64,000 nt of DNA from a virus. Shown one piece after another: positions 1,965 through 61,364 of this stretch; the first letter of the stretch is position 1; each line of letters begins with the position of its first letter. Made by a program: the position numbers and the translations under genes. The notes below the pieces were generated by a model. It did not search any database and was not told the origin of the DNA. It was given only the letters and a program-made list of their open reading frames with translations. Location: positions 1-64,000 of the IMG/VR virus record IMGVR_UViG_3300032053_005312. One strand, 5' to 3'.

Positions 1965-2030
1965 TATGTTCATCAGGTCCGCTAACTTGGTGAACAGAAA
2001 GGTTGCGGCGAGTTTAGCGGCTCGTTTGAG

Positions 2031-2102
2031 GTTGTGTTCGTCTAGTGGTCTAGGATGCCGTCGTTGAAGACGGAGACATGGGTTCAAATCCCATACACAA
2101 TC
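2031..2102 (+). tRNA. tRNA with 6-nt anticodon loop, isotype undetermined
   Basis: Acceptor GTTGTGT/ACACAAT, T arm ATGGG-TTCAAAT-CCCAT and a Glu-like D arm. The anticodon stem CCGTC/GACGG is a perfect 5 bp but encloses only GTTGAA (6 nt), so the anticodon cannot be read with certainty. It may be damaged. Confidence 0.65.
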
Positions 2103-2119
2103 TCGCAACTGAATTTTAT

Positions 2120-2198
2120 GGCCGTGGAAACGAAAGCTCCGTGGTGGGGCATCAGACTGCAAATCTGACGTTAAGAGGTTCGACTCCTCCTGCGGCCT
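2120..2198 (+). tRNA. tRNA-Cys(GCA)
   Basis: Acceptor GGCCGTG/TGCGGCC, anticodon arm TCAGA-CTGCAAA-TCTGA, T arm GAGG-TTCGACT-CCTC, discriminator T. The D region is longer than usual. Confidence 0.88.
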
Positions 2199-2206
2199 CT
2201 GAATAT

Positions 2207-2276
2207 GGCCCATCCTGCGGATCAGGTGTTGAGTTTACGAAACTTGATTACGAAGGTTCGACTCCTTCATGGGCTA
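2207..2276 (+). tRNA. tRNA-Arg(ACG)
   Basis: Acceptor GGCCCAT/ATGGGCT, anticodon arm TGAGT-TTACGAA-ACTTG, T arm GAAGG-TTCGACT-CCTTC. The D arm CCTGCGGATCAGG is shared with the Arg(CCG) gene at 17613. Confidence 0.88.
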
Positions 2277-2280
2277 CTAT

Positions 2281-2351
2281 GGGCGTTTGGTGAAATGGTA
2301 TCACGCTTGGCTTACATCCAATAGTCAGAAGTTCGATTCTTCTAATGCCTA
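2281..2351 (+). tRNA. tRNA-Val(TAC)
   Basis: Acceptor GGGCGTT/AATGCCT, anticodon loop CTTACAT, T arm AGAAG-TTCGATT-CTTCT, discriminator A. Confidence 0.9.
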
Positions 2352-2404
2352 CTAAAAAGAATTACATTGTGATGAATTTTCGATGCCAGAGCATATAATA
2401 TGTT

Positions 2405-2968
2405 ATGGAAAAAAAATACATCATAATGTCCGGTCAGAAACGTGCAGCGATTGAGTTAACTTGTGAATTTTGTAAAGAGTTATTTTTGACTCGACAAGGT
2501 GGTAAGTTAAAGCGATTTTGTAGTTCTGATTGTTGGAATAAAGCAAAAGTAAATAATGCCCAAGTTGAAGTGACTTGTGCGTTTTGCAGCAAGACTTTCT
2601 TGAAAAAGAAATCTTTGCTCAAAAATTCCAAAAGTGGATTGAGATTTTGCAATGCGACCTGCAAATGCAATGCTCAGAAATTAGGAGGCATAACTGAAAT
2701 TATGCCTTTTCATTATGGCGCAGGAGACGGGAGGTATTCTTGCAGAAACATAATTCAAGAGGGTTCAGAATGCGTTGATTGCAAAGAGAATAGATTGTAT
2801 TACTTGGTTATTCATCATGTCGATGGCGATAGGAGCAATAATGATGTAATCAATTTAGAAATAGTTTGTGCAAAATGCCATACAAAAAGACATTTGAAAA
2901 ATGTTGATGGCAAATGGATTTTTTGCACAAGTGTTTTAACTCCTCGCAATATGTTGAGTTATTTATAA
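2405..2968 (+). CDS. HNH endonuclease with two N-terminal zinc fingers
   Basis: 187 residues. Two CxxC...CxxxC zinc fingers (near residues 20-43 and 57-85) precede an HNH module with VIHHVDGDRSNN and IVCAKCHTKRH. The layout fits a DNA-binding homing endonuclease. ATG 2405 is the first start; ATG 2429 is an alternative, and neither has a strong SD. A TATAAT lies at 2394-2399. tRNA-Glu begins 1 nt after its stop. The gene is more AT-rich than its neighbours, suggesting recent transfer. Confidence 0.82.
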   Translation: MEKKYIIMSGQKRAAIELTCEFCKELFLTRQGGKLKRFCSSDCWNKAKVNNAQVEVTCAFCSKTFLKKKSLLKNSKSGLRFCNATCKCNAQKLGGITEIMPFHYGAGDGRYSCRNIIQEGSECVDCKENRLYYLVIHHVDGDRSNNDVINLEIVCAKCHTKRHLKNVDGKWIFCTSVLTPRNMLSYL

Positions 2969-2969
2969 T

Positions 2970-3041
2970 GGCCCATTCGTCTACTGGCTAGGACCGCTGT
3001 TTTTCAGGCAGCAGAAGACGGATCGAAACCGTCATGGGTCA
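2970..3041 (+). tRNA. tRNA-Glu(TTC)
   Basis: Acceptor GGCCCAT/ATGGGTC, anticodon arm GCTGT-TTTTCAG-GCAGC, T arm GACGG-ATCGAAA-CCGTC (T54 replaced by A), discriminator A. Confidence 0.88.
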
Positions 3042-3054
3042 CTTAGTTGTTGGA

Positions 3055-3121
3055 TAAATTAGTGTAACGGTAGCACGCTCCCGTGGAGGGAGAAGATTGG
3101 TTCGATTCCAATACTCATTTA
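3055..3121 (+). pseudogene. Degenerate tRNA remnant
   Basis: It keeps a T arm (ATTGG-TTCGATT-CCAAT) and a D-like segment (GTAACGGTAGCAC), but the acceptor TAAATTAG/CTCATTTA has a mismatch. The anticodon arm is CTCCC-GTGGA-GGGAG with a 5-nt loop. No usable anticodon can be assigned. Confidence 0.5.
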
Positions 3122-3122
3122 T

Positions 3123-3195
3123 GCCGCTTTGAGCAGAGTGGGATTGCGCCTGTCTTGTAAACAGGAATGAGTGAGTTCGATTCTCACAGGCGGCT
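3123..3195 (+). tRNA. tRNA-Thr(TGT)
   Basis: Acceptor GCCGCTT/AGGCGGC, anticodon arm CCTGT-CTTGTAA-ACAGG, T arm GTGAG-TTCGATT-CTCAC, discriminator T. Confidence 0.92.
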
Positions 3196-3225
3196 CTGAA
3201 TACTTTAACCTTTTGGAGAAATACT

Positions 3226-3973
3226 ATGGTGTGTCTTTGGCTCGAAACTGTGCGGATTTAGACCAACAGGTAGGTTACACCTGGGGCATTACTTCTCGGT
3301 GATTCAACCGGGACAATCTGGGTGTACTGTACTGGTGGCAAACTATCATGCACCGGAGGTAAAGAATCTGGAAGTATCCGTGAACGCCTTACGGCAATAC
3401 GGTGTCCAGACCATAGTGATTCAGAAGGACGTGTTCGACGCTGAGTTGTTCTTCCGACTATTGACGCTCGCTAAAATGGGCGACTTGAGCCGGATGACAC
3501 AATTCAAGTCAACAGAAGAGGACGATAGGACTGGTCAATTGCTGACTTACCCTGTTCTCATGGCGCATGATGTTGCGGGTTACTCCGAAGTCATTGTGGG
3601 TCTGGACCAGAAGCAGCATTTGGAATATGCCAGAAAGCTGTTGAGAAAATACAACAGCGTATATGGCACGACACATCCGATCCCGATAGCCAATATCGTG
3701 GTGGGACGTGTCAAAGATTTGCGTGACCCGACGAAGAAGATGTCGAAGTCATCACCGCAAGGATGTTTATTCCTTGATGATACGGTTGATGATATTCAAC
3801 AAAAGATTCGGAAGGCGACCGCAGATGAAGAGGGCCTGAATAACTTGAAGTTTTTGTATGGGGAGTTTGTAAGAGAAACGCCTCCAGCAAGCAATCAAGA
3901 ACTGAAAGAGAAGCTGGCCGATAGTTTGGTGAAATGCTTTGCAAGCTGTAGTGGCACAGCATCCGGCTCTTAA
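3226..3973 (+). CDS. trpS: Tryptophanyl-tRNA synthetase, frame-disrupted and 3' truncated
   Basis: The protein has RPTG and HLGHY (class I HIGH region), MTQFK, LLTYPVLMA, GLDQKQHLE and KKMSKS, so TrpRS is secure. The best start is ATG 3226 after GGAGA, but that frame ends ATT TAG A at 3256-3262. The synthetase frame is +1 and has no ATG, GTG or TTG before the HIGH motif; GTG 3299 would delete HIGH. The 3' end runs into tRNA-Lys, with the stop TAA inside its anticodon loop, so about 50 C-terminal residues are missing. It is either a decaying gene, a sequence error, or expressed by +1 frameshifting. Confidence 0.8.
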
Positions 3974-6488: not shown

Positions 6489-7049
6489 ATGAATTATAAA
6501 CAAAAATGGCGACAAAAAGCCAGACGCCTTTTGGCAGAAGCATTTGGTGGAAAGTGTGCTGTTTGCGGTTATGACAAAAGCATTGCCGCTTTGGATTATC
6601 ATCATGTGAATCCAGGAGAGAAAGACCACTCCTTATACAAAGCTATGCGAAATGGATATGCTTGGTCTAAGATTGTGGAAGAAGCTAGGAAATGCGCTCT
6701 TGTGTGCTGTAGATGCCACAGAGAAATACATGCAGGCATTACAGAGCTTCCAGAAAACTATACTAGATTCAATGAAGAATATTCTGATCTCATAAAAATT
6801 AAAAAGAAAGAATTTGATAGTTGTCCAGTTTGCAACAAAATGAAAAACTTATTGAATTCTTTTTGCTCGGTTGAATGTTCTCAAAAGAATCAACAGAGGT
6901 TTTCAATAACGAAATCCGAACTTGAAAAGTTGGTAGCTGAATTTTCTTACGAAGAAATTGGTAGAAGGTTTGGCGTTAGTGGTAACGCAATAAAGAAAAG
7001 ATGCAAGTCTTTTGGTATTGTTCTTGCTCCTAGAAAAATGCGGGTGTAA
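6489..7049 (+). CDS. HNH endonuclease with zinc finger and C-terminal HTH
   Basis: 186 residues. The HNH-zinc core is CAVC, ALDYHHVNP and LVCCRCHREIH (about residues 23-80). It is followed by a second Cys cluster (CPVC...CSVEC) and a helix-turn-helix-like end (YEEIGRRFGVSGNAIKKR). This cutter-plus-reader architecture fits site-specific homing. A TATAAT is present at 6449-6454. Its last 10 nt overlap the 5' end of a Gly tRNA relic that has lost its anticodon arm. Confidence 0.82.
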   Translation: MNYKQKWRQKARRLLAEAFGGKCAVCGYDKSIAALDYHHVNPGEKDHSLYKAMRNGYAWSKIVEEARKCALVCCRCHREIHAGITELPENYTRFNEEYSDLIKIKKKEFDSCPVCNKMKNLLNSFCSVECSQKNQQRFSITKSELEKLVAEFSYEEIGRRFGVSGNAIKKRCKSFGIVLAPRKMRV

Positions 7050-11570: not shown

Positions 11571-11613
11571 TTTTTGTAGGTTCAAACTCTATTAGGGAAT
11601 GAACCTACAAAAA
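11571..11613 (+). promoter_or_regulatory. RBS-in-loop hairpin at an HNH start
   Basis: TTTTTGTAGGTTCA (11571-11584) pairs perfectly over 14 bp with TGAACCTACAAAAA (11600-11613). The 15-nt loop holds AGGGA and the A of the ATG start. It is the same design as at 909-938 for another HNH gene. Confidence 0.6.
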
Positions 11614-11976
11614 TGCGTCTCGTGCGGACAAGAGTTTCCTCCTGAAAGTTTTCCTGCGGCTGGCACTGTCAACGGTAAATTTTACAGGAGGCGAAAATGT
11701 CAGGCTTGTTATATTGCAGTAAAGCGTAATCGTCGTCATAAATTACAAGAGTGGCTGGAGCTATATAAGTCTAGCTGTTCTTGTGAGCAGTGCGGCGAGT
11801 CCGATTTTCGTGTGTTGGACTTCCATCATCCGAATGGCGACAAAGAATTTGAAGTTGCCAATATGGTTAATGGGTTTTCGACAGAACGAATCTTGAGTGA
11901 AATCAAGAAGTGTAAGTGTTGGTGCGTTAAGTGCCATCGCATCTTCCACTATGAAGAAAGAAACAACAGGGTGTAG
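11599..11976 (+). CDS. HNH endonuclease with N-terminal zinc finger
   Basis: 125 residues. An N-terminal CVSC...CQAC zinc finger is followed by a basic linker and an HNH core: CEQC, LDFHHPNGDKEF, IKKCKCWCVKCHRIFHYEE. It is homologous to the HNH proteins at 929 and 26560. The stop TAG lies inside the 5' end of tRNA-Pro (10-nt overlap). The start region is folded into a perfect 14-bp hairpin. Confidence 0.85.
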   Translation: MNLQKCVSCGQEFPPESFPAAGTVNGKFYRRRKCQACYIAVKRNRRHKLQEWLELYKSSCSCEQCGESDFRVLDFHHPNGDKEFEVANMVNGFSTERILSEIKKCKCWCVKCHRIFHYEERNNRV

Positions 11977-26526: not shown

Positions 26527-26561
26527 CAACAAATTGTTGTTATAAGGCATACATACCTTAT
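26521..26561 (+). promoter_or_regulatory. Overlapping hairpins between a gene end and an HNH start
   Basis: TTATAACAACAA-A-TTGTTGTTATAA is a perfect palindrome (26521-26545). Its right end ATAAGG (26542-26547) can instead pair with CCTTAT (26556-26561), which carries the AT of the HNH start codon. The two folds exclude each other. Confidence 0.6.
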
Positions 26562-26949
26562 GCGAACGAGAAACAACGAGTTGAATCGCACTCATCAACA
26601 GCGATGGTATGCTCAAAATAAAGAGCTTCAAATACAAAGAAACAATGCCAATCGAGAAAAAAAGCTGACGTGGTTCATTGAATATAAAAGGAATTTGAAG
26701 TGCGAGTTGTGTCCTGAATCCCATATAGCGGCTTTGGATTTTCATCATTGTGATCCAAAGAAGAAAAGAGCGGGCATTAACAGACTGATAAATAACAACA
26801 ATAGTTTAGAGGTCATACAAGAAGAAATACAAAAGTGCAGGGTGTTATGCAGTAATTGTCATCGCAAACTACACTACGAAGAAAAGACGGGAGCATGGTG
26901 TAACGGTAGCACACGGGATTTATACCCCCGGCCTAAAGGTGAAGCCTGA
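26560..26949 (+). CDS. HNH endonuclease reading into a tRNA-like gene
   Basis: 129 residues. CELC, ALDFHHCDPKKKRAGI, IQKCRVLCSNCHRKLHYEE give a complete HNH core ending near residue 108; the rest is read through the 5' 61 nt of the tRNA-like locus and is probably fortuitous. Homologous to the HNH at 929 and shares its ATAAGGCAT upstream motif. Its start region is in alternative hairpins. Confidence 0.85.
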   Translation: MRTRNNELNRTHQQRWYAQNKELQIQRNNANREKKLTWFIEYKRNLKCELCPESHIAALDFHHCDPKKKRAGINRLINNNNSLEVIQEEIQKCRVLCSNCHRKLHYEEKTGAWCNGSTRDLYPRPKGEA

Positions 26950-57310: not shown

Positions 57311-57625
57311 ATGATAATGATACAAGCCTGCCCAAACTGCGGTCATGCCCTTCAGCGTGAATTGAAGGATGGCCTTACACATTGTTCCCATTGCAATCAA
57401 GTTTTTGATTCAAGCGATTTTAATCGTCTTTTATCAGCCGCTTGGCAAATACGCAGGGAGCATTTGTCGTTGGAACAACTTAAATGGCAATGTAAATTGG
57501 GAGACGATTATTCCATATTGATATACACATTTGTCAGTGACTATGGCTATGCCCACGATGAGTTAATCAAATTATTGCGAAAACTCGGCGTGGCAAATAA
57601 AGCGTATATCGACTTTTCGGCCTAG
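57311..57625 (+). CDS. Unknown protein with N-terminal zinc ribbon
   Basis: 104 residues. CPNCGHALQRELKDGLTHCSHC zinc ribbon, then a helical domain. No family recognised. Its position after a terminator suggests a separate transcript. Confidence 0.55.
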   Translation: MIMIQACPNCGHALQRELKDGLTHCSHCNQVFDSSDFNRLLSAAWQIRREHLSLEQLKWQCKLGDDYSILIYTFVSDYGYAHDELIKLLRKLGVANKAYIDFSA

Positions 57626-57645
57626 ATCGAGCATTGCGGCTTTGG

Positions 57646-57668
57646 TATCCTCTTATTTATGGAGGATA
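57646..57668 (+). promoter_or_regulatory. SD-sequestering hairpin before the HNH-kinase gene
   Basis: TATCCTC (57646) pairs with GAGGATA (57662) around a 9-nt loop; the right arm is the SD of ATG 57672. Confidence 0.5.
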
Positions 57669-57671
57669 AAT

Positions 57672-58763
57672 ATGAAGCCTTTTTCAGATTTGCGCAAACA
57701 ACAATTTGGTTTGCATGTCGTTCTTGAATATGTTGATCGAACACCTAGCGGACATGCTCGTTGGTTGACTGAATGTTTGAATTGCAAGTGTCGTTCTATT
57801 CGTCACGGAGTAAATATCAAAAGATGCTCTAAAGTTTCAGGAGGTTGTCGCAATTGTTCTGGTAAGCCAAAGGGGTACATGGGTCTACATCAATTATTTA
57901 CTCAATATAAATTACGTGCAAATAAAATAGGTCGTATTTTTAATTTGTCTATTGAACAATTTCAAACAGTTACATCAAGCAATTGTCATTATTGTGGTCG
58001 TGAGCCATATCAAATTAAAAACAGTGGTAACAAGAATCAAATTTCAACGTGGGGCATTTATCAATATAATGGAATTGATCGCAAGGACAATTCTAAGGGT
58101 TACATTATAGAAAACTGTCTTCCTTGTTGTGGAATTTGCAATCAGATGAAAGGCAGTATGTTGTATAAAGATTTTGTTGATTGGCTCGATGTTGCGTCCA
58201 CTTTTCGCAAAAATAGAAATGGTGATAAGGTGATGGCGGACATCGGCGTCGGATACAGGGTCAAAATTCAAATTTTATGCGGAATGATCGCAGCAGGAAA
58301 GTCATCTTATTGTAAATTAGCCGCCAAAAAAGGAATGTTGATTTTGAACGATGACGCAATCGTCAATATGCTCCATGCTGATGACTATACGCTTTATAGT
58401 ACCGATCTCAAGGTGTTGTATAAGTCTGTTGAAAATCACGTTATTGGAACCAGCCTTGCTATGGGCCGTTCAGTAATTGTTGATCGTGGACTCAATATGA
58501 GTCTTGCCGGTCGGCGTCGTTGGTTGGCCTTGGCTCAAAGTTTTGATGTGCCATGTGAAGCCATTCATTTCAAAAACGACGGACCAGAAGAACACGCTCG
58601 TCGTCGTACTCAATCTGATGGTCGAGGCCACACCTGGGAATATTGGCTTAGGGTTGCAGAGCTTCATAATTCCTTGTATATTCCACCTACTAAAGAAGAG
58701 GGCTTTGATGCCATCTACGATATTGGGTTTGATGAAATACAGCAAGGTAAAGTCATTCTTTAA
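57672..58763 (+). CDS. HNH endonuclease fused to a polynucleotide-kinase-like P-loop domain
   Basis: 363 residues. Residues 1-180: Cys-rich start (CLNCKC, CRNCSG), then HNH with CHYCGREP, NGIDRKDNSKGYIIENCLPCCGICN. From about residue 188 (MADIGVGYRVKIQILCGMIAAGKSS) a P-loop kinase follows, with GRSVIVDRGLN and RRRTQSDGRGHTW. An internal ATG at 58233 could start the kinase alone (AAGGTG upstream). The HNH seems to have inserted at the kinase 5' end. Confidence 0.78.
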   Translation: MKPFSDLRKQQFGLHVVLEYVDRTPSGHARWLTECLNCKCRSIRHGVNIKRCSKVSGGCRNCSGKPKGYMGLHQLFTQYKLRANKIGRIFNLSIEQFQTVTSSNCHYCGREPYQIKNSGNKNQISTWGIYQYNGIDRKDNSKGYIIENCLPCCGICNQMKGSMLYKDFVDWLDVASTFRKNRNGDKVMADIGVGYRVKIQILCGMIAAGKSSYCKLAAKKGMLILNDDAIVNMLHADDYTLYSTDLKVLYKSVENHVIGTSLAMGRSVIVDRGLNMSLAGRRRWLALAQSFDVPCEAIHFKNDGPEEHARRRTQSDGRGHTWEYWLRVAELHNSLYIPPTKEEGFDAIYDIGFDEIQQGKVIL

Positions 58764-58775
58764 GGGGACTTGTAA

Positions 58776-59648
58776 ATGGAGTGTAGGCTCATTGATGGCA
58801 ATGCCATTGCCGCCGATATTCGTAAAGAATTACGACAACGTGTGGCAGAATATAAAGCAACTACAGGTATCACCCCGACTTTAGTTGCTTTGATGGTGGG
58901 CAACAATCCAGCCAGTCAAATTTATGTCCAAAAGAAAATTGCTGCCTGTGATGAAGTTGGCATATTGGCATATCGAGTTGAATCAAATGAAGATGAGGAC
59001 GATCTCCGAACTCATATTCGGAGATTGAACAATGATGATTCGGTGCATGGATACATTCTTCAACTGCCATTGCCTCCAGGATGGAAACCCGATAGATATT
59101 TTTCTGACTTCAATCCGTATAAAGATGTGGATGTATTCCACCCGGAGAATGTAGGCTTGCTGGTTCAAGGGCGACCCAGGTTTAGACCTTGTACGCCACA
59201 CGGTATTCAGGTGATGCTCCATAGGAGCGGCATTAAAGTTGCGGGAAAGAAAGTGGTTGTCATCAATCGCAGCAATGTGGTTGGCAAACCTCTATCCTCA
59301 ATGCTTATTCAAGAGTGCGATGATTACGCCAATGCCACGGTCACAGTATGCCACGACCGCACGCCTCCTGATCTTCTCAAAAGCGTTACTCAAACAGCCG
59401 ATATTGTAATTGTCGCCGTGGGCAAACCGGGATTCCTGACTCCAGATATGATTCGACCGGGAGCGGTAGTGATTGATGTGGGCATTACACGAATTGGAAA
59501 CAAGGTAGTTGGAGATGTTGATTTTGAAAATGTCAGTAAAGTTGCTGGTGCTATATCTCCGGTCCCAGGTGGTTGTGGACCAATGACAGTTGCTATGTTA
59601 TTGGAAAATACTTTACAAGCTGCTAAATATCAAACAAAAAGCCATTGA
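58776..59648 (+). CDS. folD: FolD methylenetetrahydrofolate dehydrogenase/cyclohydrolase
   Basis: 290 residues. VGNNPASQIYVQKKIAACDEVGI (with catalytic Lys region), YILQLPLPPG, DVDVFHPENVG, VINRSNVVGKPLSSML and the signature PGGCGPMTVAMLLENTL. It interconverts folate one-carbon units, feeding thymidylate, purine and formyl-Met synthesis. Its 3' end, after LLENTL, has been altered; see the HNH gene that follows. Confidence 0.92.
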   Translation: MECRLIDGNAIAADIRKELRQRVAEYKATTGITPTLVALMVGNNPASQIYVQKKIAACDEVGILAYRVESNEDEDDLRTHIRRLNNDDSVHGYILQLPLPPGWKPDRYFSDFNPYKDVDVFHPENVGLLVQGRPRFRPCTPHGIQVMLHRSGIKVAGKKVVVINRSNVVGKPLSSMLIQECDDYANATVTVCHDRTPPDLLKSVTQTADIVIVAVGKPGFLTPDMIRPGAVVIDVGITRIGNKVVGDVDFENVSKVAGAISPVPGGCGPMTVAMLLENTLQAAKYQTKSH

Positions 59649-59664
59649 TCCGAATAGATACTGT

Positions 59665-60297
59665 ATGGGAACATACAAAAAAGATATTCGTCAAGAACGT
59701 AGAGATTTAGGTCTGTGCATTTACTGTGGAAATGATGCAAAAGGATTTCGTCGTTGTGAGTCTTGCAGAGAAAAATCAAACAAGGCAACCGCTCGTTGGC
59801 GAGATAAAAACAAAGAAGCTGGTTTGTGTATAAAGTGCGGCAAACCTACCTCAGAAGGTCATACTCGTTGTGAAGATTGCCTAGTTTCGCACAATGCTGT
59901 TTATTCACAGAGGAAACAGCGTGGAGTTTGTCTTTATTGTGGAAAGTCGTCTGATTATGGACATTGTGAAATTTGCTATCTGAAAAAACGAGCGACAAGA
60001 CATTTAGGAGATGCTTCTATGTGGATTTTGCTAAAAAAGATATTTGACGATCAACAAGGGATTTGTCCATATACGGGAATCGAATTACAGATTCGAGCGA
60101 ACACCGAATTAGATCATCGCATCCCCAGAAGCAAAGGTGGCACGGACGAGTTGTCGAATCTACAGTGGGTTTACGCTCCGGTGAACACAATGAAGTGGAA
60201 TATGACTGAAGGCGAATTTTTGGCGACTGTTGGAAAGGTTGCCGCCCACATGCTTTTGGAAAATACTTTGGCCGCAGCCCAGCTTCAAGGGCAGTAG
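59665..60297 (+). CDS. HNH endonuclease carrying a copy of the FolD C-terminus
   Basis: 210 residues from ATG 59665, which has no clear SD. Repeated CxxC zinc fingers (CIYC, CESC, CIKC, CEDC, CLYC, CEIC) precede an HNH core (TELDHRIPRSKGGTDELSNLQW). Its last residues AAHMLLENTLAAAQLQGQ repeat FolD VAMLLENTLQAAKYQTK, also at DNA level. This suggests insertion at the 3' end of folD with the old end displaced into the HNH gene. Confidence 0.8.
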   Translation: MGTYKKDIRQERRDLGLCIYCGNDAKGFRRCESCREKSNKATARWRDKNKEAGLCIKCGKPTSEGHTRCEDCLVSHNAVYSQRKQRGVCLYCGKSSDYGHCEICYLKKRATRHLGDASMWILLKKIFDDQQGICPYTGIELQIRANTELDHRIPRSKGGTDELSNLQWVYAPVNTMKWNMTEGEFLATVGKVAAHMLLENTLAAAQLQGQ

Positions 60298-60299
60298 GC

Positions 60300-60329
60300 T
60301 TTACAACCACAACTATTCGGTGGTATAAT
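60300..60329 (+). promoter_or_regulatory. Promoter TTTACA-N18-TATAAT for prs
   Basis: GGTGG before a consensus -10; spacer 18, the only 18 in the set. Overlaps the HNH stop region; GTG 60357 is 28 nt downstream. Confidence 0.7.
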
Positions 60330-60356
60330 TCTCTCACAGAAAAGGAGACTTTAACC

Positions 60357-61364
60357 GTGAACGATTTGCGTATTTTTGGCCTGGGATCGAGCGTTGAATA
60401 CACAGATCAAGTATGCAAGGCGTTATCGCTCAAGCGATCTGACCACAAAGAGACGTGGCAAGACGATGACGAGCCTTACGTCCTTTCCCAAGAGAATGTT
60501 CGGGGCTGTGACGTATTCATCGTGCAGAGTTTGTACTCCTGTCACAAAGAGCGGCTGGCAGATAAGTTCCTGAAGCTCCTGTTGTTCGCTCGTTCTCTTC
60601 GTGACGCATCGGCCCGGCGTATTACGCTTGTGTTGCCGTATTTCGCATTTCAACGTCAGGATCGAAAAACCGAGTCCAGAGCGCCGGTATACACCAAATA
60701 CATCCCTGAAATTGTCGAGGGCTTGCTTCGTCCCGACGACCGCATTTTGACTATTGATGCTCACAACCTGAGCGCATATCAGTCGGGCTTCCGGTTGATG
60801 CTCGATCACCTTGAGGCGAAACCAGTTGTCTGTGACTGGTTCAGCAATGCCGCTGCCCGACTTTGGCCCGAAGTCGATTTCGACAATCTCTGTTTTGCAT
60901 CACCCGATGAAGGTGGCGTCAAGCGTGTTGGTTTCTATCGAAAACGTGTTCAGTCTCAGATGAAAATCGAGATCAGCACGGCGTCAGTCTACAAAACCCA
61001 CGAGGGTAAGCAGATTGAGGCACATGGCGTGATGGGTAACGTCCAAGGCAAAGACGTGTTCCTGATTGACGACATGATCTCGTCTGGAACCACGTTGGTA
61101 AAAGCAACCGATGCCATTGAGAAGGAAGGCGGCAAAGTTCGGGGTGCTATCGCAACGCACGGTTTATTCGTCGGTAACGCCAATGAGCGTATAGGGTTAC
61201 TGCAAGAGCGTGGCATCAGGGTTATCGTCACCGATACTGTCCACACCAATAAGTTGGACCCAAAGTTGCAGAAGTCGTTGGTGGTTATTCCGACCGCTCC
61301 GCTAATCGGTGAAGCGATTCGGTGTATTCACAACGAAGAGTCTGTCAGCAAATTACTTTCCTAA
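60357..61364 (+). CDS. prs: Ribose-phosphate pyrophosphokinase (PRPP synthetase)
   Basis: 335 residues; GTG 60357 with AAGGAG upstream. RRITLVLPYFAFQRQDRK and VFLIDDMISSGTTL (PRPP loop) are PRPP synthetase motifs; the middle contains EGGVKRVGFYRKR. It would make PRPP for nucleotide and NAD synthesis. Homologues act in phage NAD+ reconstitution (NARP1, as Adps), an alternative role not provable here. Confidence 0.85.
   Translation: MNDLRIFGLGSSVEYTDQVCKALSLKRSDHKETWQDDDEPYVLSQENVRGCDVFIVQSLYSCHKERLADKFLKLLLFARSLRDASARRITLVLPYFAFQRQDRKTESRAPVYTKYIPEIVEGLLRPDDRILTIDAHNLSAYQSGFRLMLDHLEAKPVVCDWFSNAAARLWPEVDFDNLCFASPDEGGVKRVGFYRKRVQSQMKIEISTASVYKTHEGKQIEAHGVMGNVQGKDVFLIDDMISSGTTLVKATDAIEKEGGKVRGAIATHGLFVGNANERIGLLQERGIRVIVTDTVHTNKLDPKLQKSLVVIPTAPLIGEAIRCIHNEESVSKLLS

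What the first reader, a model, noticed from the sequence alone, without database searches (positions are those of the whole stretch)
58776..60297. HNH insertion at the folD 3' end leaves two copies of the FolD C-terminus
FolD ends VAMLLENTLQAAKYQTK; the HNH ends AAHMLLENTLAAAQLQ. DNA is also alike (ATGTTATTGGAAAATACTTT versus ATGCTTTTGGAAAATACTTT). The old folD end appears to have become the HNH C-terminus, while folD received a replacement end. This would keep folD working after insertion.
Basis: partly seen in the sequence, partly recalled or inferred. Interest (0 to 1): 0.7.

Follow-up and report, generated by a model that had tools for sequence, protein, structure and literature searches.

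The report
Selfish endonuclease swaps its target's end
In a large phage, a selfish DNA-cutting gene sits at the end of the metabolic gene folD and appears to have brought a spare, differently spelled end for folD, so the target stays whole while its old end is left as a scrap on the invader; the same layout turned up at two other genes in other phages.

Summary
A sister phage (L001, about 93% identical) has an uninterrupted folD whose last 15 codons and stop are the tail of the window's HNH ORF (46/48 nt). The window's folD matches the sister at 225/229 residues up to codon 229, then drops to 59% nucleotide identity over its last 60 codons. That end is AT-richer and closer to other phages' FolDs, so it is a foreign replacement, not a self-duplication. 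No HNH homologue found carries the LLENTL tail, and no intron family matches.

The pattern is wider than reported. The neighbouring kinase gene has a mirror-image insertion: an HNH on the kinase's start codon, then a replaced kinase 5' end. A survey of about 95 HNH loci found the same 3'-end architecture at thyX (L135) and at a SLOG-like gene (L098; uninterrupted relative L258).

Best explanation: homing HNH elements that bring a diverged target-gene end during break repair, keeping the target intact and presumably uncuttable, and leaving the native end as a stub. Closest precedents are fungal mitochondrial mobile ORFs that form gene hybrids. I found no phage report in the searchable literature. 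Cleavage, homing and FolD activity are untested.

The parts
58776..59464 (+). native folD body (codons 1-229 and most of 230)
   Evidence: 225/229 residues identical to the uninterrupted folD of L001; identity breaks sharply at codon 230
59465..59648 (+). foreign replacement 3' end of folD (last 60 codons and stop)
   Evidence: 59% nt identity to L001's folD end against 96% just upstream; GC 0.39 against 0.46 for the body; better match to other phage FolD tails
59665..60249 (+). HNH endonuclease, zinc-ribbon plus HNH (PF13395/PF01844, phrog_1035)
   Evidence: D150, H151, N165, N174 among the invariant columns of the homologue alignment
60250..60297 (+). stub: the displaced native folD 3' end, now read as the last 15 codons and stop of the HNH ORF (MLLENTLAAAQLQGQ*)
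   Evidence: 46/48 nt identical to L001:3817-3864, the end of uninterrupted folD
60357..61364 (+). ribose-phosphate pyrophosphokinase (PRS), the native gene after folD
   Evidence: same neighbour in L001 and L010
57672..58232 (+). second HNH ORF, placed on the native RBS and start codon of the kinase gene (shares GGAGGATAA.TATGAAGC with L001)
   Evidence: absent from L001; HNH family hits
58233..58400 (+). foreign replacement 5' end of the kinase gene (mirror-image case)
   Evidence: low nt identity to the L001 kinase 5' end up to about 58400, then about 97%; includes a 17-codon run with identical residues and about 8 silent differences
58401..58763 (+). native remainder of the P-loop kinase gene (PF13671, polynucleotide-kinase-like)

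Best explanation
The window carries a free-standing HNH homing endonuclease that invaded the 3' part of folD. In the likely event, the HNH cut an uninterrupted folD somewhere in native codons 231-272. Repair copied a donor's diverged folD 3' end plus the HNH gene. The left exchange occurred by homology inside folD at codon 229/230, and the right side was rejoined just past the cut, leaving the native last 15 codons as a stub in frame with the HNH ORF. The outcome is a complete hybrid folD whose end differs enough in DNA to be presumably no longer cut, followed by the HNH gene. A mirror-image element replaced the 5' end of the adjacent kinase gene. Shown by sequence: the two copies, the sister's uninterrupted gene, the sharp breakpoints, the foreign nature of the new end, the mirror case, and the same layout at two other genes in other phages. 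Inferred: cleavage, homing, resistance of the new end, and activity of the hybrid FolD.
For: Uninterrupted folD in L001 and L010 with the same PRS neighbour. Stub identical to L001's folD end at 46/48 nt. Breakpoint at codon 230: 609/690 nt identical before against 106/180 after, Fisher p about 2e-17. Body and tail have different nearest relatives. Inserted stretch AT-richer. HNH intact and homologues lack the tail. Mirror-image HNH on the kinase start codon with a replaced kinase 5' end. Same architecture at thyX in L135 and at a SLOG-like gene in L098 with uninterrupted relative L258. folD is the only clearly real gene in the window pair with this kind of 3' drop. Same design documented in fungal mtDNA (PMC3630166; PMC4019555), and free-standing phage HEGs are known to co-convert flanks (PMC2988022).
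Against: No donor phage carrying this HNH with this folD end was found. The right junction inside the recipient's own folD is not what simple two-sided homologous homing predicts. No cleavage site is known. In L098 the two ends are about equally close to the relative, so which is foreign is unresolved there. The thyX end type seen beside HNHs also occurs without an HNH, so it may partly reflect a clade. Single metagenomic contig without reads.
Confidence: 0.77

Rival explanations
1. Self-duplication: the phage's own folD end was duplicated when the HNH inserted, and the upstream copy then diverged.
For: The two copies share a 14-nt word and the conserved MLLENTL motif.
Against: A self-copy should be as close to L001's end as the stub is (96%). 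The upstream end is at 59% nt, includes 40 further diverged codons, has a sharp breakpoint, is AT-richer and sits nearer other phages' FolD tails.
Confidence: 0.05
2. Two unrelated events: ordinary mosaic exchange of the folD 3' end with another phage, and an HNH that happened to land at the same place.
For: Phage genomes are mosaic; these two genomes differ by many insertions.
Against: The exchange ends where the HNH cassette begins, the same coupling occurs at the kinase next door (mirror image), and again at thyX and a SLOG-like gene in other phages.
Confidence: 0.08
3. Self-splicing or recoding: an intron, an intein or a translational bypass joins the native stub to FolD, so the two ends are alternatives.
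For: The stub keeps the FolD reading frame and stop, so a joined product would make sense.
Against: No Rfam intron match in 57400-60500 even at E 5; the upstream folD already has a complete end and stop; no intein domains in the family hits; the stub is out of frame with the HNH in L135 and L098.
Confidence: 0.04
4. The LLENTL tail is a working part of the HNH (for example a DNA-contact or folding helix), kept by selection.
For: It is in frame and only silently diverged from L001.
Against: Homologous HNHs end before it, other elements have the stub out of frame, and thyX elements L138-L140 have no detectable stub.
Confidence: 0.04
5. Assembly chimera of two phages.
For: The record is a 78.6-kb metagenomic fragment and reads are not available.
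Against: Synteny with L001 runs on both sides for the whole window, both reading frames are preserved, and independent contigs show the same architecture.
Confidence: 0.03

Closest known systems
Mitochondrial mobile ORFs that form gene hybrids (Glomus atp6/atp9/cox2/nad3, PMC3630166; Allomyces atp6, Phlebia atp6/cox2 and Ophiostoma rps3, discussed in PMC4019555)
   Same: An endonuclease ORF sits at a gene's 3' end; the gene carries a foreign, mostly silently diverged C-terminus and the native C-terminus lies downstream as a leftover.
   Different: Those are LAGLIDADG or GIY-YIG enzymes in fungal mitochondria; here HNH enzymes in phages, with a mirror-image 5' case and the stub fused to the HNH ORF.
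Free-standing phage homing endonucleases (T4 seg/mob; intronless homing)
   Same: Intron-less endonuclease gene beside its presumed target gene, with co-conversion of flanking target sequence (PMC2988022).
   Different: In the cases reviewed the HEG lies between intact genes or splits its target (mobE in Aeh1 nrdA); no restored end with a leftover native stub appeared in the passages I read.
ShiLan-type hidden HNH insertions in phage methylases (PMC11855218)
   Same: HNH element inside a phage gene without intron or intein.
   Different: The target is read through the insertion in another frame; no end is replaced or duplicated.
Engineered home-and-rescue gene drive (HomeR, PMC7968924)
   Same: A homing nuclease cassette carrying a re-coded 3' end of the gene it cuts.
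   Different: Synthetic CRISPR system in Drosophila; an analogy of design only.

Membership tests
HNH endonuclease (PF13395/PF01844; phrog_1035) | HNH domain above curated cut-off with catalytic residues | tested here: met
   PF13395 27.8 bits (cut-off 22), PF01844 22.4 (cut-off 21.4); D150, H151, N165, N174 invariant in the homologue alignment
Free-standing homing endonuclease | presence/absence polymorphism at an otherwise syntenic site | tested here: met
   absent in L001 and at L010's folD, present in the window, same flanks
Free-standing homing endonuclease | not inside an intron or intein | tested here: met
   no Rfam intron hit; no intein family hit
Free-standing homing endonuclease | cuts the allele lacking it and spreads in mixed infection | not testable with these tools
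   needs biochemistry or crosses
Mobile ORF forming a gene hybrid (fungal mtDNA type) | foreign C-terminus on the target gene, native C-terminus downstream of the endonuclease ORF | tested here: met
Mobile ORF forming a gene hybrid (fungal mtDNA type) | LAGLIDADG or GIY-YIG enzyme in a fungal mitochondrial genome | tested here: not met
   HNH enzyme in a phage; hence it works like, but is not a member of, that group
Group I/II intron | conserved ribozyme structure | tested here: not met
   no Rfam intron match at E up to 5 in 57400-60500
FolD (hybrid gene) | full-length profile match including the C-terminal PGGxGPMT region | tested here: met
   PF00763 and PF02882 full length; phrog_7320 residues 1-286, E 8.5e-93
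FolD (hybrid gene) | enzyme activity | not testable with these tools
   needs expression and assay

The most novel reading that the evidence does not exclude
Phages harbour a general class of HNH homing elements that carry a spare, sequence-diverged 3' or 5' end of the gene they cut, acting as natural home-and-rescue drives that keep nucleotide and folate genes (folD, thyX, kinases) whole while making them resistant to re-cutting, and that leave displaced native stubs as a recognisable scar.
Probability: 0.5. Interest if true: 0.8.

Novelty: new variant of a known kind. Interest (0 to 1): 0.62.

Why it matters
Selfish endonucleases in intron-less form are usually thought to live next to their target and leave it alone, or to split it. 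Here the element seems to enter a metabolic gene and pay for it by supplying a new end. If so, that explains how such elements can settle inside coding sequence without a splicing device, how they may immunise their host DNA, and how gene ends get exchanged between distantly related phages. It also gives an annotation rule: an HNH next to a gene whose end is repeated just beyond it. And it supplies natural counterparts to engineered home-and-rescue drives for testing.

Tried and rejected
DNA-level search of phages for the inserted stretch gave only weak folD-tail matches and no donor. A pattern scan of viral contigs with the HNH protein alone found nothing, and the HNH was not found in the L001, L009 and L010 records. 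Survey hits dismissed: L157 and L028 (an ORF overlapping itself), L174/L175 (tandem HNH copies), L124 (paralogous zinc-finger-like genes), L104/L146/L125 (low complexity or weak), L108-L110 (paralogous neighbours). L120 (HNH fused behind about 420 codons of terminase, followed by a complete terminase) resembles the 5' mirror case but may be a tandem duplication, so it is not counted. A scan of the window against L001 for genes with diverged ends gave mostly spurious ORFs; only folD was a clear 3' case. No structure was predicted, since the question turns on sequence history.

Full report
Where it lies. The window is 64 kb of a 78.6-kb virus record. At 58776-59648 lies folD, at 59665-60297 an HNH endonuclease ORF, and at 60357-61364 a ribose-phosphate pyrophosphokinase, PRS.

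The uninterrupted gene. A 340-kb phage contig (L001; IMGVR_UViG_3300020172_001601) is syntenic with the whole window at about 93% identity but lacks the HNH. Its folD runs straight into PRS and ends GPMTVAMLLENTLAAAQLQGQ. The last 48 nt, ATGCTTTTGGAAAATACTTTGG...CAGTAG (15 codons and stop), are 46/48 identical to the end of the window's HNH ORF, with both differences silent, and the intergenic sequence that follows is the same. A more distant phage, L010, also has uninterrupted folD before PRS. So the arrangement without HNH is most simply the older one, and the HNH's tail is the displaced native end of folD.

The replacement end. Codon by codon, the window's folD is 225/229 residues identical to L001's up to codon 229. 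At codon 230 (position 59465) identity falls abruptly to 106/180 nt, compared with 609/690 before it, Fisher p about 2e-17. The new end is AT-richer (GC 0.39 against 0.46). Its best relative among the viral folDs examined is L056 (43/55), to which the body is only 90/227 identical; L001 scores 38/57 on the tail and 225/229 on the body. The new end is therefore foreign, not a diverged self-copy. It keeps the PGGxGPMT motif, and the protein matches the FolD profiles over its full length, so a working enzyme is likely but unproven.

The HNH. It matches HNH_4 and HNH in Pfam and phrog_1035, with the catalytic positions invariant among homologues. Homologues in other phages end at or just after the ...MTxxEFxxL... 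helix, and none has the LLENTL tail. No intron family matches the region. The HNH start lies 16 nt after the folD stop with no evident ribosome-binding site; translational coupling, as reviewed for T4 endonucleases (PMC2988022), is plausible but inferred.

The mirror image next door. Immediately upstream, the kinase gene of L001 begins GGAGGATAACTATGAAGCTGCAAG. In the window the same ribosome-binding site and start, GGAGGATAAATATGAAGC, now begin a second HNH ORF (57672 onward). After it comes a kinase 5' end that differs from L001's up to about 58400 and then is about 97% identical to it. Within the replaced part, a run of 17 residues is identical but carries about 8 silent differences. The native ATG position of the kinase reads GTC in the window, so the kinase must now start at the upstream in-frame GTG/ATG or be made as a fusion with the HNH. 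The two neighbouring elements thus show the same design in opposite directions.

The pattern elsewhere. I scanned about 95 HNH loci from phages and a few bacteria for protein-level repeats flanking the HNH. Two independent 3' cases stood out beside folD. In L135, thyX ends CKKIFCEQFPIISEALGGFMQDWCI, then comes the HNH, then a stub reading CKQIFNQQFPLISEALGWNETQT in a different frame. Among 84 thyX loci, ends fall into two types, SEALGG..EW.I and EALGW.NET-like. The six HNH-adjacent genes all have the first type, while L135's stub is of the second. L138-L140 have the same thyX-HNH pair but no detectable stub, suggesting that stubs erode. In L098, a SLOG-like gene ends ...GTLDALTKAEKLNKKIIIVSF, then the HNH, then a stub ...GTKDSIKKADKAGKKILIITF, then a nicotinamide-phosphoribosyltransferase-like gene. 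The syntenic relative L258 has one uninterrupted copy directly followed by that gene. The names SLOG-like, thyX and nicotinamide phosphoribosyltransferase are my reading of the sequences, not a profile search. Which of L098's two ends is foreign is not resolved. Because short stubs and 5' cases are invisible without a close relative, these counts are minimum values.

How it probably works. The HNH cuts uninterrupted folD between codons 230 and 272. Repair from a donor copies the donor's folD end and the HNH gene, with the left exchange by homology inside folD and the right join just beyond the cut. The folD stub happens to be in frame with the HNH; in L135 and L098 it is not, so the fusion is probably incidental. 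The diverged end would no longer be recognised by the enzyme. Cleavage, homing and resistance are inference.

Comparison. The same architecture is documented in fungal mitochondria: Glomus atp6, atp9, cox2 and nad3, where a mobile endonuclease ORF carries a foreign C-terminus and the native one lies downstream (PMC3630166), and Allomyces, Phlebia and Ophiostoma cases discussed in PMC4019555. Those in Glomus are LAGLIDADG or GIY-YIG enzymes. Phage homing endonucleases are known to co-convert flanks or split genes (PMC2988022), and hidden HNH insertions in phage methylases are known (PMC11855218). Full-text searches turned up no report of replaced and leftover gene ends in phages, but the library covers only open-licence papers and I read only parts of the hits. 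The engineered HomeR drive uses the same trick on purpose (PMC7968924). I therefore rate it a new variant of a known kind.

Noticed in passing
window 57672-58763: Mirror-image element: HNH ORF on the native start codon of a P-loop kinase gene, followed in frame by a replaced kinase 5' end; no stop between them, so possibly made as one fusion protein.
   Followed up: yes
window 1-27000: Array of 35 predicted tRNA genes with at least four small HNH ORFs (2405-2968, 6489-7049, 11599-11976, 26560-26949) lying between or against tRNAs in stretches absent from the sister phage.
   Followed up: partly
window 26560-26949: HNH ORF whose last residues (GAWCNGSTRDLYPRPKGEA) look like a translated tRNA, perhaps another end-of-gene fusion, here with a tRNA.
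   Followed up: no
L120:1864-5814: HNH fused in frame behind about 420 codons of large terminase, followed by a complete terminase gene; the two copies are 91-94% identical only near the junction.
   Followed up: partly
L138, L139, L140 (thyX and HNH, about 2009-3342): thyX-HNH pairs without the native stub seen in L135, suggesting the stub is lost with time.
   Followed up: partly
L177-L256: Phage thyX C-termini fall into two types; the SEALGG..EW.I type occurs with and without an adjacent HNH, so some may be scars of lost HNH elements.
   Followed up: partly
L009: A related phage lacks both folD and the kinase between the conserved zinc-ribbon gene and PRS, so the whole two-gene block is dispensable or mobile.
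   Followed up: no
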